The position numbers and the translations under genes were made by a program. A DNA stretch of 64,000 bases from Alphaproteobacteria bacterium (GTDB lineage Bacteria; Pseudomonadota; Alphaproteobacteria; Rickettsiales; JABDBP01): NCBI GenBank assembly GCA_013288565.1, contig JABDBP010000001.1, forward strand, positions 303-64,302, in the 5' to 3' direction. The notes under the pieces were generated by a model. The model saw only the letters and a list, made by a program, of their open reading frames with translations. It was not told the DNA's origin and did no database searches. Below, one piece after another: positions 4,735 to 63,113 of this stretch (position 1 is its first letter; every line of letters begins with the position of its first letter).

Positions 4735-5172
4735 CTATCCAGCGGCGCCAAACAACTCATCTGCCCGGGCCTCAAACGCCGAAACCATGGCCTTGAGGGC
4801 TTTTTCGAACACCAGCCCGATCATTTTCTCCAAAAGGTACGAGCGGAACTGGAAATCCAGCGAAAAATTAATCTCACAGCCATTTTCTCCCCGGTCGAAC
4901 CGCCAGCTATTGGTCAATCTAGAAAACGGCCCCTCCACTAGCTCCACCTCGATGCGCTCCGGCGGGTATAAATGCACTTTCGAGGTGTATTTTTCGCTGA
5001 AACCGGCGAAACTTACCAGTAAATCGGCGATCAGCCAGCCTTCCCCTCTGTCCCGGATACGCGCCGCCTTGCACCAGGGCAGGAATTCCGAGTATTTTTC
5101 AATATCAGCTACAAGCGAAAAAAGCTCTTCCGGGCTGTGGTTGGAATGGCGGGTTTCGCTGTGAATTGGCAT
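4735..5172 (-). CDS. ratA: RatA/COQ10-family START-domain ubiquinone-binding protein
   Basis: 145 aa; HSPEELFSLVADIEKYSEFLPWCKAARI, EINFSLDFQFRSYLLEKMIGLVFEKALKAMVSAFEARA. Confidence 0.9.
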   Translation of the reverse strand: MPIHSETRHSNHSPEELFSLVADIEKYSEFLPWCKAARIRDRGEGWLIADLLVSFAGFSEKYTSKVHLYPPERIEVELVEGPFSRLTNSWRFDRGENGCEINFSLDFQFRSYLLEKMIGLVFEKALKAMVSAFEARADELFGAAG

Positions 5173-5180
5173 GATAAGTT

Positions 5181-5271
5181 TCGAGTTAAGAGTTGCAAGT
5201 TGCGAGTTGCCAGAAAAATGTTCTAAACTGATAACTTATAACTCTCAACTCTGAACTCTGCACTCGCAACT
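5181..5271. repeat. heptad-period inverted repeat array
   Basis: GAGTTAA GAGTTGC AAGTTGC GAGTTGC then TAACTCT CAACTCT GAACTCT GCACTCG CAAC, ending directly at the ppk ATG. Confidence 0.75.
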
Positions 5272-7389
5272 ATGTCCAATCCCTCCCGCTTCCTAAACCG
5301 TGAAATTTCGTCGCTCTCGTTCCAGGCACGGGTGCTGGAGGAGGCGAACAATCCGAACAATCCACTACTGGAACGCCTCAAATTCTTAAGCATTTCCGCC
5401 AGCAACCTCGACGAATTCTATATGATTCGCGTCGGTGGGCTGATGTATCGCGCTAAAGACGAGGATGATGAACCTGGCATCGACGGCAAAACCGCAACCG
5501 AGCAACTGGAATTAATCAATGCGCGCGCATTGGAATTAATGAAAAACCAACAATCTTGTTGGGCGGCACTCCGCGCGGATTTAAAAAAACAAAACATCAC
5601 GTTGGTGGAAAAGCAGGAATTATCGCTGGAGGAAACCCAATGGCTTAAAGCACATTTCATCGCCAGCATTTTCCCAGCTTTGACGCCAATCGCCATCGAC
5701 CCAGCGCATCCATTTCCCTTCCTGCCGAATCTGGCACTGGCGATCATATTGCACTTGGAGCGTGCCGCGGAGGGCTATGACCGGAAACTACTGGGAAGCC
5801 GGGATTTCCGTGGCATCATCCCGCTGCCCGCCAGTCTGCCACGTCTAGTCCGGTTGCCTGATTCCGGCCAAGAAATACGGTTCATATTGTTGGAGGACGT
5901 GTTGGATATTTTCTCGAGCGAATTATTTCCCGGTTGCAAGGTGCTGGAATCTGGACTCGTCCGCATCACCCGCGATAGCGATTTGGAAGCGATGGAAGAA
6001 GCGGAAGATTTGGTCAGCTCATTCGAGACAGCGCTGAAAAAACGCAAGCGTGGCATCATCATCCGGCTTAAGGCGAGCAGTTCCATGGCCGCGCATCTCC
6101 TGGATTTTGCCATCCAGGAATTCGCCGTTGCGCCGGGAGACGTGATAAGAATTGACGGCCTGCTTGGGATTTCAAGTCTTGCCGAGCTTTATTTAATCGA
6201 CCGCCCGGATTTAAAATTTCCCGCGATGAACATTAGGTTTCCCGAGCGGATCAGCGATTTCGATGGTGATTGCTTTGCTGCCATCCATGCGAAAGACATT
6301 GTAGTACATCATCCGTATGAAAGTTTTGACGTGGTGGTGCAGTTCTTGCGTCAAGCGGCGGCCGACCCGGACGTGGTGGCGATAAAACAGACGCTATACC
6401 GCACCAGCAACGATTCGCCGATAGTGAAGGCATTGATCGAAGCGGCGGAAAACGGCAAGGCGGTGACGGCATTGGTGGAATTGAAAGCACGATTCGACGA
6501 GGAGGCCAACATCAGGTGGGCGAGGAACCTGGAGCGCGCTGGCGCGCAGGTGATTTACGGATTCGTGCGCCTAAAAACCCATGCAAAGGTGTCGCTGATC
6601 GTGCGGAAAACGCCGGAAGGGTTGCAATCCTACGTGCATTTCGGCACCGGGAATTATCATCCGGTGAATGCGAAAATCTACACCGATTTGTCCTTTTTTA
6701 CCTGCGATCCTGCCTTATGCCGTGACGCAGCCCATTTATTCAATTATTTAACCGGCTATTCGCCGCCTGCCGTTTTCGAAAAAATCTCTATCGCGCCGAT
6801 CAACCTGCGGCAAAACCTGAAATCATTGATCGCAGATGAGATGGCGCATGCGAAATCTGGCAAAAAGGCGGCAATATGGCTGAAGGCTAATTCGCTGGTC
6901 GATCCTGATATAATCGATGATTTATACCGAGCATCCGCAGCTGGAGTTTCGATTGATCTGGTAATCCGGGGAATTTGCTGTCTCAGGCCGGGAGTGAAAG
7001 GATTGTCGGAAAATATCCGGGTAAAATCGATCGTCGGGCGATTCCTGGAACACTCGCGGATTTTCTGCTTTGGCGCCGGGTATGGGCTGCCCTCGGCCAA
7101 AGCTAAGGTTTTCATATCGTCCGCCGATTTGATGCCGCGCAACCTCGACTGGCGGATTGAAGTCATGGTTCCGATCGAAAACCCGACGGTTCATGAGCAG
7201 ATCATGAGCCAAATAATGGGCGCAAATTTGAAAGATGAGAACCAAAGCTGGGTGCTGCAAGGCGATGGGAGCTATTCGCGCGCGGAACATAAAAAGAATT
7301 CATTCTCTGCGCACGAGTTTTTCATGCAAAATCCTTCGCTTTCCGGCCGTGGTAAAGCACTGCATGGAAAGAAGAAGGCTAGCAACTAG
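5272..7389 (+). CDS. ppk: polyphosphate kinase 1
   Basis: 705 aa; RFLNREISSLSFQARVLEEA, SNLDEFYMIRVGGL, HAKVSLIVRKTPEGLQSYVHFGTGNYHPVNAKIYTD. Confidence 0.97.
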   Translation: MSNPSRFLNREISSLSFQARVLEEANNPNNPLLERLKFLSISASNLDEFYMIRVGGLMYRAKDEDDEPGIDGKTATEQLELINARALELMKNQQSCWAALRADLKKQNITLVEKQELSLEETQWLKAHFIASIFPALTPIAIDPAHPFPFLPNLALAIILHLERAAEGYDRKLLGSRDFRGIIPLPASLPRLVRLPDSGQEIRFILLEDVLDIFSSELFPGCKVLESGLVRITRDSDLEAMEEAEDLVSSFETALKKRKRGIIIRLKASSSMAAHLLDFAIQEFAVAPGDVIRIDGLLGISSLAELYLIDRPDLKFPAMNIRFPERISDFDGDCFAAIHAKDIVVHHPYESFDVVVQFLRQAAADPDVVAIKQTLYRTSNDSPIVKALIEAAENGKAVTALVELKARFDEEANIRWARNLERAGAQVIYGFVRLKTHAKVSLIVRKTPEGLQSYVHFGTGNYHPVNAKIYTDLSFFTCDPALCRDAAHLFNYLTGYSPPAVFEKISIAPINLRQNLKSLIADEMAHAKSGKKAAIWLKANSLVDPDIIDDLYRASAAGVSIDLVIRGICCLRPGVKGLSENIRVKSIVGRFLEHSRIFCFGAGYGLPSAKAKVFISSADLMPRNLDWRIEVMVPIENPTVHEQIMSQIMGANLKDENQSWVLQGDGSYSRAEHKKNSFSAHEFFMQNPSLSGRGKALHGKKKASN

Positions 7390-7395
7390 AATATA

Positions 7396-8910
7396 TTGCC
7401 AATGACCAATGACCAATTATCAATCGCCGGCCAAAAAATCGCAGTAATCGATATCGGCTCGAATTCGGTCAGGATGGTGGTTTATGACGGGCTAAAGCGT
7501 GTGCCATTGCCGTTGTTCAACGAAAAAGTATTATGTGGCCTGGGCAAAGGGATGAACAAAACCGGCCGGCTTAACCCGGAAGGCATTGAAGCGGCAGAAC
7601 GCGCAATCGCCCGGTTTGCACTCATCGCGCAAAGCATGAAGGTCACCCGCGTAATCGCGCTTGCTACCGCTGCGGTGCGCGACGCTTCCGACGGTAAATC
7701 ATTCGCCGAAACAATCAGGAATAAATACCGGTTGGACGTGAAAATCATCAGTGGTGAGGAAGAAGCACGGCTTTCCTGCCTCGGTGTTTTGGAATCGATA
7801 TTCGATGCGCGCGGCGTGGTCGGCGATTTGGGCGGTGGCAGCCTGGAGCTTTCCTACATAAACTCCGATAAAAAAGATTTCGGCGGCTATAGAAGCTTCC
7901 CCATCGGGCCGCTCCGGCTCAAAAACCGCGACAAGCAGGATTATAAAAAAGCCGCGGAAATAATCGACGAATATATCCTCTCCTGGCCGCACCTGAAAAT
8001 GGCGGAGGGTCGGGATTTTTACGCGGTCGGCGGCGGTTTCCGGGCGCTGGCGAAAATCCATATGGCCAATTCGGAATATCCGCTCCGCGTGTTGCATAAT
8101 TATTCTGTGCCGGTGAAAAAGCTTGAGGAAACCTTGGATGACATCGCTGGAACATCGCCCACATATCTAAAGAAATTCCCGTTCATCTCGGAAAACCGGC
8201 GGGAAACAATGGCCTTGACCGCGCTTATCGCCAACCGGTTGATAAAACACTTAAAGCCGGAGCGCATGATTTTTTCGGTGCATGGCATTCGCGAGGGTTA
8301 TTTGTTCGACCAGTTGAGCGAAAAAATAAAATCCGAAGACCCCCTGCTAACCGGCTGCTCCGACATGATTGAGCGCACTTCGCCCGAGCCGAAATCGCTA
8401 TGGACAAAATTCGGCTATGAGCTTTTTGATTGGATGTCGCCGCTTTTCCCGGAGGAAAAATCTGGGCCCGCGAAACTTCGGCTCGCCGCCTGCATCCTAT
8501 CGCGCCTCGCCTGGTACGAGCATGCTGAATACCGTGCCGGAGTGGCCTGCCGATTGATATTGGATGCAGCGATTTCCGGCATCGGCCACGAAGCGCGGGT
8601 GTTCATTGCCACAGCAGTTTACCATCGCTATAAGACCGTGTTCGAAAGCTCTGGGCTAGCAAGGCCGGTTGCCTTGATCGAAAAAAAGGAAATCGCTGCG
8701 GCGAAAACCGTTGGTTTGGCGGCGCGCTTAGGGATCGGTCTTTCTGGTGGAGCGCTTGGGGTTTTGCGCCAGGCGCCGCTCGTCCTGGAGAAAAACCGGC
8801 TGGCGATTAGCCCAGAGCGGCGCTCGGAAAGCTTGGTCGGCGAGCCAGTTCGGAGAAGATTTTATAAGCTGGCCGAAAGCCTGGATTTGAAACCTGAGAT
8901 AAGAATCTAG
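7396..8910 (+). CDS. ppx: Ppx/GppA exopolyphosphatase family protein
   Basis: 504 aa; AVIDIGSNSVRMVVYDG, GVVGDLGGGSLELSYI; N-terminal codons overlap a heptad repeat so the true start may be slightly downstream. Confidence 0.92.
   Translation: MPMTNDQLSIAGQKIAVIDIGSNSVRMVVYDGLKRVPLPLFNEKVLCGLGKGMNKTGRLNPEGIEAAERAIARFALIAQSMKVTRVIALATAAVRDASDGKSFAETIRNKYRLDVKIISGEEEARLSCLGVLESIFDARGVVGDLGGGSLELSYINSDKKDFGGYRSFPIGPLRLKNRDKQDYKKAAEIIDEYILSWPHLKMAEGRDFYAVGGGFRALAKIHMANSEYPLRVLHNYSVPVKKLEETLDDIAGTSPTYLKKFPFISENRRETMALTALIANRLIKHLKPERMIFSVHGIREGYLFDQLSEKIKSEDPLLTGCSDMIERTSPEPKSLWTKFGYELFDWMSPLFPEEKSGPAKLRLAACILSRLAWYEHAEYRAGVACRLILDAAISGIGHEARVFIATAVYHRYKTVFESSGLARPVALIEKKEIAAAKTVGLAARLGIGLSGGALGVLRQAPLVLEKNRLAISPERRSESLVGEPVRRRFYKLAESLDLKPEIRI
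7397..7426. repeat. heptad-period tandem repeat at ppx 5' end
   Basis: CCAATGA CCAATGA CCAATTA TCAATCG. Confidence 0.6.
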
Positions 8911-9535: not shown

Positions 9536-10987
9536 ATGGCAGATACCTTAGAAATTAAAGCGGAACAAGTTATCTACACTAACGTGGAAGAAGATCTGAG
9601 TACCAATAGATTTCGGGGCTTCCAATTATGGCAACGCTCTCCAGGAATTAACGATTCCACATATCGAGAGATATCAGAAGTGCTTGGCTCTGGAACCACA
9701 ACATACACTCTTTCAGATTTACAACGAGAAATTAGAAAAGGAGCAAACTACAAAATTTTTTATGAAAAAAGTGGAACAATTTATATTCCTACCGACTTAC
9801 AAAAAACAGGTAAAGGCAAAGATGGTACAATCAAAGGAGGTCGCGAAGTATTTTTTCATAAGGAAATAAGTGGAGATAGAATAGTGATTGCCAGGGCTAT
9901 CGACTTAACGCGAACAGATATATTTGGCAGAAAGGGCAGGGCTACAGGCCATGCGGTTATTATAGATAAAGAAGATTTTGCAAAGATCGGCAATGATCCA
10001 ACCCAGATATTCAACAGAGTCCAATTCTACGGTGAGCCATACGAAGATCCTAGGTATGTACAAGATAGAAAGATTATAAAGCGCCCTCAAGAGAACGATC
10101 TTGAGCAGATTACCTTAAAACTGGAGCCACGGGAGCAATCTCAAACTGCTCCTGAGCTTGAAGAAGATCCGGTTCCAGATGAAGTATTGCCAGAAGTTGC
10201 GGAACAAGACGGGCCAGTTTTTAACGGAGAAGAAGATGATGATTTCAAGCTGAATTTGGATGATGAATCCTCTCTGGAGCCGGAGGAGGAGAGTGATCTC
10301 GCTCTACGGGATGATTTTGATTCCTGGCCGGGACTGAATGATGATGACTCCTCTCTGGAGCGGGATGGCTTTGCTGGCTGGGATGAAGAGGAGGAATTAA
10401 CTAGCGAGCCTGGCAAAAATCATGCTCAGGAAATCATAGAGCAAAGTGATGGCCTGAGATACCGCGTATGGCAAAAGAATGAAGACGGCGTTTTCGAGAA
10501 AGTAGAAGAAGTAGAAGAAGTAGAAGAAGGCGAAGAGATCAGGGTGGCTACCACCCGCAATCTGCGGGATTTCGTGGTAAAAAAACTTAAAGATGTAAAC
10601 TATAGAAATCCCACCAAATTAGAAGAAGTAGCTGAGGTTAATGGCGTATCAATCTATAACTTAAAAGATTTTATAAAGGCAAAACTCCCCAATACCCGGG
10701 ATAAGCTGAAATTGGAACCGGATAATTTCCGCCTGTACTGCAAAAAAGACGAGGAGCCTCCTTTGACGCTCCACTATTATGGGGAGAAAGATAGTGAGGC
10801 AGCTGCTGGTATTAAAAAGTTACTAGTAAAACTGGGAATGGTGTCCAATCATTTTAACCCCGAAAAGAAATTCACAGAATTTAAATTAGATAATCCAAAG
10901 CTTGCCCTCGATTTCTTCCAGGCGGTATCGGAGAAGCAGGCGGAGATAAAGCGGGCTAAAACAGAAGCCGCTGCTAAGATGCCTTAA
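9536..10987 (+). CDS. hypothetical acidic protein
   Basis: 483 aa ORF; Asp/Glu/Ser-rich central region; possible ATG at 9537 region. Confidence 0.75.
   Translation: MADTLEIKAEQVIYTNVEEDLSTNRFRGFQLWQRSPGINDSTYREISEVLGSGTTTYTLSDLQREIRKGANYKIFYEKSGTIYIPTDLQKTGKGKDGTIKGGREVFFHKEISGDRIVIARAIDLTRTDIFGRKGRATGHAVIIDKEDFAKIGNDPTQIFNRVQFYGEPYEDPRYVQDRKIIKRPQENDLEQITLKLEPREQSQTAPELEEDPVPDEVLPEVAEQDGPVFNGEEDDDFKLNLDDESSLEPEEESDLALRDDFDSWPGLNDDDSSLERDGFAGWDEEEELTSEPGKNHAQEIIEQSDGLRYRVWQKNEDGVFEKVEEVEEVEEGEEIRVATTRNLRDFVVKKLKDVNYRNPTKLEEVAEVNGVSIYNLKDFIKAKLPNTRDKLKLEPDNFRLYCKKDEEPPLTLHYYGEKDSEAAAGIKKLLVKLGMVSNHFNPEKKFTEFKLDNPKLALDFFQAVSEKQAEIKRAKTEAAAKMP
10502..10528 (+). repeat. 9-bp in-frame tandem repeat (GTAGAAGAA)x3
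   Basis: Direct reading; encodes VEEVEEVEE. Confidence 0.85.
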
Positions 10988-24180: not shown

Positions 24181-24214
24181 AGGCTTGCAACTTTGCAACT
24201 TGCAACTTACAACA
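24181..24214. repeat. heptad-period tandem repeat
   Basis: CTTGCAA CTTTGCAA CTTGCAA CTTACAA between glyQ and the polyprenyl synthase. Confidence 0.65.
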
Positions 24215-42599: not shown

Positions 42600-43007
42600 T
42601 TATTGAGAGTCTGAGAGTTTGAGAATTTGAGAATCTGAGTTAGATTCTTTCCGTTTCAGAGAATTATACAGAAAATGCAGCATAACGCTAATTTCCTTTA
42701 ATTTTTCATATAGGCCGGAAAAATCAGAATCATCAATATATCCTAGTTTCGTGGATATTATAAGCTGAGTTTCGCATTCTGCGACCGAGCCTTGCGAAAC
42801 TCTGATGAACCTTAAAAACTCTTTCGTCGATTTCCTGCTGCTTCCCTCGGCGATATTAGAAGGGATTGAGATTGCCGCACGGCAAATTTGATTGATAAGC
42901 CGGTATTTTTCCTTTTCCGGAAACTTCTCAGTAGCGACATAAACTTCCTCCACCAATGCTATGGATTTTTGCCAAACCACTAGATCCTTATAACTTTTAA
43001 TACTCAT
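42600..43007 (-). CDS. S23/four-helix bundle protein (23S rRNA intervening-sequence protein family)
   Basis: 135 aa; YKDLVVWQKSIALVEEVY...INQICRAAISIPSNIAEGSSRKSTKEFLRFIRVSQGSVAECETQL; C-terminus NSDSQILKLSDSQ encoded by the flanking repeat. Confidence 0.93.
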   Translation of the reverse strand: MSIKSYKDLVVWQKSIALVEEVYVATEKFPEKEKYRLINQICRAAISIPSNIAEGSSRKSTKEFLRFIRVSQGSVAECETQLIISTKLGYIDDSDFSGLYEKLKEISVMLHFLYNSLKRKESNSDSQILKLSDSQ

Positions 43008-43059
43008 TTACTTCACTCAAACTCTCAGATTCTCAAACTCTCAGATTCTCACCTCCTCA
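42603..43059. mobile_element. putative S23-containing insertion bracketed by inverted 8-nt-period repeat arrays
   Basis: Left GAGAGTCT GAGAGTTT GAGAATTT GAGAATCT GAG; right CTCAAACT CTCAGATT CTCAAACT CTCAGATT CTCAC (inverted orientation); lies exactly between fliF stop and fliG ATG. Confidence 0.55.
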
Positions 43060-45055: not shown

Positions 45056-46765
<1,710 letters not shown>

Positions 46766-62000: not shown

Positions 62001-63113
62001 ATGCCCCTTAAACAACGTTGTCATCCCCGCGAAGGCGGGGATCCATATCCCAGAGAATTCTCAGTATGCCGCACGATGGATTCCCGCTTTCGCGGGAATG
62101 ACAAGGCCCATATTTCCATCTGGCTTTTTGCCTGTGCCGCGTTGGTTTTCCTGATAGTGATCATCGGCGGGTTGACGCGGCTTAGCGAATCCGGCTTGTC
62201 GATTGTTAGCTGGCAGCCGGTGAAAGGCGTGATTCCGCCACTGGATGTGCGCGATTGGCAAAATCTTTTCGCTGCCTATAAGCAAACTCCGCAATATCTG
62301 AAAATAAATTACGACATGAGCCTGGAGGAATTCAAAAACATTTTCTGGCTGGAATATATCCACCGTGTTCTGGGCCGTATTATCGGGCTGGTTTTTCTCG
62401 TTCCGCTATTATTTTTCATCATCACGAAAAAAATCGGGAAAAATCTCGCTCTGAAGCTTTTTTCTATCGCTCTGCTTGGCGCGTTGCAGGGATTTATTGG
62501 CTGGTACATGGTAAAAAGCGGGTTGGTTGATAATCCCGCGGTCAGTCACTATCGGCTGGCACTGCATCTTTTTCTTGGATTTGTGATTTATGCGATGTTA
62601 CTCTGGGCGGGGCTTAATAGTGCAGAGTGCGAAGTGCAGAGTGCAGAGAAGGCAACTCTTAACTCAGCACTTCGCACTCTGCACTCCCTCGCTATCAGCG
62701 CTTTCATCCTATTCCAAACCATCCTCGGCGCATTCGTATCGGGGACGCATGCTGGGCTGATATATAATGATTTTCCCCTGATGGGCGGCCATATTATCCC
62801 GGAGGATATTTTTTTCCTGCATCCATTGTGGCTGAATTTCTTGCAAAATCCGGCGACAATCCAGTTCCAGCACCGTATGATGGCGTTTATTTTGTTCATA
62901 CTTATCTTGATTTTCCGGGTAAAGAATCCTGGAGATAAGGCTGCCGGGTTGCTGCTGGCCGTGGCACTTATACAAGTTCTTCTCGGGATTTTAACCCTGG
63001 TGAACCATGTTCCGGTACTCTTCGCCGCTGCGCACCAGGCCGGGGCGCTGGTATTATTCTCGGTTTCCCTGTTTATTAATTACCGCCTATATGCTATAAG
63101 CCAAAAATCATGA
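62001..63113 (+). CDS. ctaA: heme A synthase (COX15/CtaA)
   Basis: 370 aa; [40 protein letters not shown]; carries two repeat-derived segments. Confidence 0.95.
62020..62102. repeat. composite palindromic repeat inside the ctaA reading frame
   Basis: GTCATCCCCGCGAAGGCGGGGATCCAT...ATGGATTCCCGCTTTCGCGGGAATGAC, translated as [28 protein letters not shown]. Confidence 0.85.
62619..62687. repeat. heptad-period inverted repeat inside ctaA
   Basis: AGTGCAGAGTGCGAAGTGC (62619-62637) and exact reverse complement GCACTTCGCACTCTGCACT (62667-62685). Confidence 0.85.

What the first reader, a model, noticed from the sequence alone, without database searches (positions are those of the whole stretch)
5181..5271. 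Heptad-period inverted array directly abutting the ppk start codon
Reads GAGTTAA GAGTTGC AAGTTGC GAGTTGC - spacer - TAACTCT CAACTCT GAACTCT GCACTCG CAAC, then ATG. Both arms have a strict 7-nt period with related words in opposite orientation, so the pair can fold. It fills the ratA-ppk divergent intergenic region and leaves ppk with no visible Shine-Dalgarno. It is the clearest member of a family seen at least six times here (ppk, ppx, glyQ-ispB, thiC, ctaA, S23 element). The closest described class I know is the heptanucleotide STRR repeats of cyanobacteria; here arms are inverted and word sequence drifts between loci while period is kept.
Basis: partly seen in the sequence, partly recalled or inferred. 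Interest (0 to 1): 0.7.

Follow-up and report, generated by a model that had tools for sequence, protein, structure and literature searches.

The report
Gene-less copy of an IVP repeat element
The stretch in front of the ppk gene is a small hairpin of inverted 7-letter repeats that belongs to a family of spreading elements; complete members carry one gene, for the little-understood 'S23/IVP' ring protein, and this link may explain why 7-letter repeats are so common in bacteria.

Summary
Window 5176-5271 carries five G-rich heptads, a 21-nt spacer and five to six inverted heptads that end at the ppk ATG; there is no Shine-Dalgarno, and simulated sequences never gave such arrays. The comparison with cyanobacterial STRRs misses the main point. 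The 'S23 element' in the same window is a PF05635 (IVP) gene bracketed by inverted 8-nt arrays, and this layout is general: in 95 IVP loci, 97/190 flanks carry 7-nt arrays against 2/118 control flanks. The two arms match each other. Words travel with IVP lineages, and the ppk word (AGTTGC) is that of an IVP clade in sister genomes. Arrays of that word occur in 17 of 39 IVP+ and 2 of 95 IVP- genomes of the order (p=4e-9). Within one genus the element is present, absent, decayed or reduced to arms at one junction, and both arms change word and period together. The ppk array is best read as an IVP-less (MITE-like) member of this family. How it moves, and why the unit is 7 nt, are not shown. I found no paper linking IVP to heptad repeats.

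The parts
5176..5210 (+). G-rich left arm: AAGTTTC GAGTTAA GAGTTGC AAGTTGC GAGTTGC (7-nt period)
5211..5231 (.). A/T-rich spacer of the IVP-less element (no gene)
5232..5271 (+). C-rich right arm, inverted relative to the left arm: TAACTTA TAACTCT CAACTCT GAACTCT GCACTCG CAACT, ending at the ppk ATG
   Evidence: fold
5272..7389 (+). ppk (polyphosphate kinase); start codon abuts the array, no Shine-Dalgarno
4735..5172 (-). ratA-like gene (Polyketide_cyc), divergent; array begins 3 nt from its start
42600..43007 (-). IVP/S23 four-helix-bundle gene (PF05635, E 6e-40; PDB 2gsc XCC0516, E 4e-25) between fliF and fliG: the full-length element of this window
42602..42641 (.). 8-nt arm (TGAGAATC-type) at the IVP 3' end, inside the end of its ORF and next to the fliG start
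43016..43051 (.). inverted 8-nt arm at the IVP 5' end, next to the fliF end
62616..62688 (.). inverted heptad pair (AGTGCAG type) in frame inside ctaA/COX15
7395..7426 (+). single heptad arm (CCAATGA type) between ppk and ppx
24184..24213 (+). single heptad arm (TTGCAAC type) at the start of ispB
46363..46400 (.). single heptad arm (GGAGTTG type) inside thiC

Best explanation
The ppk array is a non-autonomous, IVP-less member of a dispersed element family. A full-length member is two inverted arrays of 7-8-nt units, G-rich strand pointing inward, around one small gene for the IVP/S23 four-helix-bundle protein, a pentamer related to the Avd accessory protein of diversity-generating retroelements. 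A short member keeps only arms and spacer. Likely working: the arms pair as a hairpin in RNA or single-stranded DNA. Slippage changes copy number, and copying between paired arms keeps them complementary while word and even period drift. IVP acts on arms of its word class in cis and in trans and lets elements settle in tolerated gaps: operon junctions, 3' ends, start codons, in-frame loops. SHOWN: the IVP-array association, matching arms, concerted change, word inheritance, presence/absence between species, purifying selection on IVP. INFERRED: binding by IVP, action in trans, the copying mechanism, and any effect on ppk translation.
For: Period-7 arrays in 97/190 IVP flanks and period-8 in 14, against 2/118 and 0 in flanks 620-850 bp away; inverted-repeat score median 17 against 8. 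Also on plasmids of Cyanobacteriota, Bacteroidota and Gemmatimonadota. Own-arm match 15.9 against 7.0 for other loci, p 5e-5. Left arm G-rich in 53/55; word correlates with IVP identity at different junctions, Mantel r 0.23, p 2e-4. ppk word AGTTGC flanks IVPs of one clade (L152, L172, L240); G031 has an IVP-less copy of that word almost against the start of a gene, as at ppk (L412). AGTTGC arrays: 17/39 IVP+ against 2/95 IVP- genomes, p 4e-9, within-family p 0.004, 207 of 209 hits in IVP+. Filled, empty, decayed and arms-only states at one junction. Orthologous IVP-less site 3' of acnA: both arms change word and period together, p 5e-5. Same junction entered by different IVP lineages. IVP dN/dS 0.07. 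ratA-ppk pair without an array in three relatives.
Against: The only IVP found in this 70%-complete genome has an 8-nt word, not AGTTGC, so the presumed helper of the ppk element is not seen. No target-site duplication was recognised. Four more divergent species of the test genus have arms without IVP at the same junction, so arms may sometimes come before the gene. Xanthomonas heptads are reported as mostly stable in position between species (PMC4692102). No binding or movement has been observed. Array density outside IVP loci was only weakly higher in IVP+ genomes in a small sample.
Confidence: 0.72

Rival explanations
1. Self-generated hairpin repeats: replication slippage plus template switching within a chance palindrome makes and homogenises inverted heptad arrays without any protein; IVP genes merely land in such arrays.
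For: Arms change together and copy number varies widely, as template switching in palindromes predicts. Arms-only states exist at the test junction. Reverse transcriptase (RVT_1) is absent from 9 of 10 array-rich genomes.
Against: IVP flanks carry arrays far above control; arrays of the ppk word concentrate in IVP+ genomes; word follows IVP lineage across different junctions. Chance hairpins would not respect this.
Confidence: 0.17
2. A cis-regulatory element for ppk: the array is a translational or transcriptional control site (protein-binding heptads at a start codon without a Shine-Dalgarno), as proposed for TAACTGA repeats.
For: It abuts the ATG, there is no Shine-Dalgarno, and it folds stably. 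Parallel cases lie in front of other starts.
Against: Similar elements sit in 3' regions, in operon junctions and in frame inside leuS, ileS, ubiD and ctaA. Words differ between loci, and the related ratA-ppk pairs lack it. A regulatory effect could still be a by-product.
Confidence: 0.08
3. A processing or termination signal: the hairpin is an RNase III site or terminator between transcripts.
For: Long imperfect hairpin in RNA; IVS stems in 23S rRNA are cut by RNase III (PMC4990558).
Against: No U-run or terminator found. It lies between divergent genes, where a terminator has no use. It does not explain the IVP link.
Confidence: 0.03

Closest known systems
IVS elements of 23S rRNA with the S23/IVP ORF (e.g. 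Coxiella, Leptospira; PMC4990558)
   Same: Same protein family (PF05635), complementary ends that form a stem, patchy distribution.
   Different: Here the elements lie in protein operons and within genes, not in rRNA; ends are variable-word 7-8-nt arrays; gene-less copies abound.
GGGAATC heptads of Xanthomonas, 70-75 convergent inverted pairs per genome (PMC4692102)
   Same: 7-nt unit, convergent G-rich pairs, dispersed between genes. A Xanthomonas IVP (XCC0516) is the solved structure nearest the window's IVP.
   Different: Described as G-quadruplex repeats not linked to mobile elements; IVP not mentioned.
TAACTGA repeats of Beggiatoaceae and cyanobacterial/Bacteroidetes relatives (PMC4679880)
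   Same: Heptads ending next to start codons without a Shine-Dalgarno; the author suggested that a repeat-binding protein might itself be the mobile part.
   Different: Almost all direct arrays, one fixed word; no such protein was named.
Geobacter metallireducens class-3 heptad sites (PMC2700814)
   Same: Heptad arrays drawn as strand-switching pairs.
   Different: Filed as global regulator binding sites.
Cyanobacterial STRR heptanucleotides
   Same: 7-nt unit in intergenic DNA.
   Different: Mainly direct arrays, as known from the literature; the cyanobacterial plasmid IVPs examined here are flanked by inverted heptads.
Rickettsia palindromic elements and MITEs
   Same: Short inverted elements, in-frame insertions in essential genes, gene-less copies.
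   Different: No fixed consensus and no transposase parent seen; the parent gene appears to be IVP.

Membership tests
IVP-associated inverted heptad element (defined here) | Two inverted arrays of 7-8-nt units, G-rich strand inward, short spacing | tested here: met
   ppk element 5176-5271; polarity in family
IVP-associated inverted heptad element (defined here) | Word shared with an IVP-bearing element | tested here: met
   AGTTGC word at IVPs L152, L172, L240 in sister genomes; not at the own-genome IVP
IVP-associated inverted heptad element (defined here) | IVP gene between the arms | tested here: not met
   ppk element has only a 21-nt spacer; met at window 42600-43007. Hence gene-less member at most.
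IVS element of 23S rRNA | PF05635 ORF | tested here: met
   Window 42600-43007 only
IVS element of 23S rRNA | Location in 23S rRNA | tested here: not met
   Between fliF and fliG; other loci in operon junctions
IVS element of 23S rRNA | Excision by RNase III | not testable with these tools
   Needs RNA mapping
STRR / long simple sequence repeat | Tandem 7-nt units in intergenic DNA | tested here: met
STRR / long simple sequence repeat | Direct array with one fixed word | tested here: not met
   Inverted arms and drifting words
MITE | Short element with inverted ends, gene-less, dispersed | tested here: met
MITE | Target-site duplication | tested here: inconclusive
   Filled and empty sites compared; none obvious
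MITE | Transposase-encoding parent | not tested
   Loci with matching ends carry IVP; no search for a transposase elsewhere was made
Rickettsia palindromic element | In-frame insertion in protein genes | tested here: met
   ubiD 11-residue insertion; leuS linker; ileS, ctaA, thiC frames open. Not for the ppk copy, which is intergenic
Rickettsia palindromic element | Conserved consensus sequence | tested here: not met
   Word varies by locus
Retroelement / DGR | Reverse transcriptase in the genome | tested here: not met
   RVT_1 absent in 9 of 10 array-rich genomes

The most novel reading that the evidence does not exclude
IVP genes and their variable-word inverted heptad ends form an unrecognised class of mobile element without transposase or reverse transcriptase, in which the ring-shaped IVP works on hairpins of 7-nt units; gene-less copies are a main source of the heptanucleotide repeats that dominate long simple repeats of bacteria.
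Probability: 0.4. Interest if true: 0.9.

Novelty: new variant of a known kind. Interest (0 to 1): 0.75.

Why it matters
Two old puzzles meet here: why 7-nt units are the most common long simple repeats in bacteria (attributed to polymerase contact by Mrazek and co-workers in 2007, as reported in PMC4679880), and what the S23/IVP protein does (no known function, PMC4990558). If IVP elements make or spread heptads, both become testable with one protein and one repeat array. It would also offer a protein candidate for the 'repeat-binding mobile element' guessed at in 2015, and would matter for annotation, since arrays alter start regions, stop codons and loops of essential genes.

Tried and rejected
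Terminator and promoter reading: nothing towards ppk. Reverse-transcriptase help: absent in 9 of 10 genomes. Array density in 20 IVP+ and 20 IVP- stretches: 4 inverted heptad elements against 0, too few to weigh; replaced by the AGTTGC test over 134 genomes. First Mantel test was contaminated by shared flanking genes and was redone with array windows only, same-junction pairs excluded. My early reading that the array always replaces the upstream stop codon was wrong: several species keep a stop codon in front of the array. 'IVP and arms always arrive together' was dropped after four arms-only sites. CtaA against solved structures: no match. Rfam on the window: only the tRNA.

Full report
WHAT IS THERE. 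Window 5176-5271 holds five G-rich heptads, a 21-nt spacer and five to six heptads in the opposite orientation, ending at the ppk ATG at 5272. Lag-7 arrays of this strength occur four times in the window and never in simulated sequences of the same dinucleotide make-up. The stretch folds far better than shuffles as RNA (z -4.2) or DNA (z -3.2). It fills the gap between a ratA-like gene and ppk. Three relatives in the order keep the divergent ratA-ppk pair without any array, so the element is specific to this lineage.

THE REST OF THE GENOME. The host is an alphaproteobacterium (Ppk best hits about 60% identical to Rhodospirillales) with a 1.34-Mb, 70%-complete assembly. Twenty stretches round pattern hits gave, together with the window, 18 period-7 and 9 period-8 arrays; most other periods gave 0-3, apart from the multiples 14 and 16. 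Many are inverted pairs. They fill gaps between genes (psd-pss, infB-rbfA, in front of fabH) or lie in frame inside leuS, ileS, ubiD and ctaA, and a single arm lies in thiC. In UbiD one arm encodes an 11-residue insertion relative to E. coli UbiD and the other lies in a loop.

THE KEY LINK. IVP genes occur in 39 of 134 genomes of the order and 64 of 399 of the phylum. In 95 IVP loci, 97 of 190 flanks carry period-7 arrays and 14 carry period-8, against 2 and 0 of 118 control flanks 620-850 bp away. The inverted match between the two flanks has a median of 17 against 8. The usual layout is upstream stop, G-rich arm, IVP, C-rich arm, start of the next gene, often in operon junctions such as carA-carB or pdhA-pdhB (gene names there read from the sequence, not from a family search). 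Plasmid IVPs of Nostoc, Geminocystis, Trichormus, Riemerella and Gemmatirosa look the same.

THE ARMS. In IVP loci each arm matches its own partner (15.9) better than partners at other loci (7.0; p 5e-5). The left arm is G-rich in 53 of 55. IVP similarity and array word correlate even for pairs at different junctions (Mantel r 0.23, p 2e-4). The ppk word, AGTTGC, is that of IVPs L152, L172 and L240, which fall in one supported clade. One of those genomes, G031, also has an IVP-less AGTTGC element that almost abuts a start codon, a close twin of the ppk element (L412). G030 has many IVP-less elements with the word of its one IVP.

GENOME-LEVEL TEST. AGTTGC arrays were counted in 134 genomes of the order. 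They occur in 17 of 39 IVP+ and 2 of 95 IVP- genomes (Fisher p 4e-9; within-family permutation p 0.004); 207 of 209 hits lie in IVP+ genomes, and the reversed-pattern control rang in one genome.

MOVEMENT. In one genus of 41 species (unnamed by the tool), a roughly 0.5-kb IVP element lies between an acyl-CoA dehydrogenase gene and a dehydrogenase gene (named from their sequences); filled gaps measure 449-579 bp. It is filled in 13 species and empty, with about 35 bp, in most others. It is decayed in one, where both arms have become 8-nt arrays, and arms-only in four more divergent species. Heptad copy number differs widely. IVP there is under purifying selection (dN/dS 0.07). Gene-less elements of the same word (GTAGGCA) are frequent in that genus. 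At one orthologous gene-less site 3' of acnA the word differs between species (GTAGGCA, GTAGTGA, and 8-nt words CAGTAGGG, GAGTAGGG, GGGAATAG), with both arms following (p 5e-5). The IVP tree shows that junctions such as carAB were entered by more than one IVP lineage.

MECHANISM. Shown: association, pairing arms, concerted change, word inheritance, presence/absence, selection on IVP. Inferred: the arms pair and are copied onto each other during replication or repair; slippage sets copy number; IVP, a pentameric ring related to the DGR accessory protein Avd (PMC10053308), acts on arms of its word class. A reverse transcriptase is not needed in the same genome (absent in 9 of 10). Why the unit is 7 nt is open. 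Any effect on ppk translation is untested.

AGAINST WHAT IS KNOWN. Inverted heptad pairs were seen in Xanthomonas (PMC4692102) and, as putative regulator sites, in Geobacter (PMC2700814). Heptads at start codons were seen in Beggiatoaceae (PMC4679880). S23/IVP was known from IVS elements in rRNA (PMC4990558), and IVP was named among CRISPR-linked candidates in a large clustering study (PMC10910872). I found no paper that joins IVP to heptad arrays, but only open-licence papers could be searched.

LIMITS. The own genome is incomplete and shows only an 8-nt-word IVP. Related genomes are not independent, though the within-family test stands. The order of events at the test junction is unresolved.

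Noticed in passing
L184:3094-3277 and many places in genomes of genus g102: A separate palindromic element of about 185 bp, matching on both strands, is present in many copies in this genus; it lies beyond the IVP element and is unrelated to the heptads.
   Followed up: no
L281 (G529) and L409 (G564): At the same dehydrogenase-gene junction where other species have the IVP element, two species carry a different palindromic insert (ATGCATGTCGCCCAAAAGTGCG...), so the junction attracts more than one element.
   Followed up: no
window 10500-10536: 18-nt tandem repeat (AAGTAGAAGAAGGAGAAG) inside or near an ORF at 9536-10987; multiple of three, probably coding.
   Followed up: no
L253, Riemerella anatipestifer plasmid NZ_CP081938: IVP with AAGGTTC/AAGGTTT heptads near lepA on a plasmid record; similar records from several isolates could serve as a strain-level test of movement.
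   Followed up: partly
L252, Anabaena sp. 90 plasmid pANA02: IVP gene between cas6 and cas4 of a type I-D CRISPR locus; heptad flanks might explain why IVP was reported as CRISPR-linked (PMC10910872).
   Followed up: no
G128 (95 AGTTGC hits) and G558 (113 GTAGGCA hits): Two genomes with extreme numbers of one heptad word, good candidates for recent activity.
   Followed up: no
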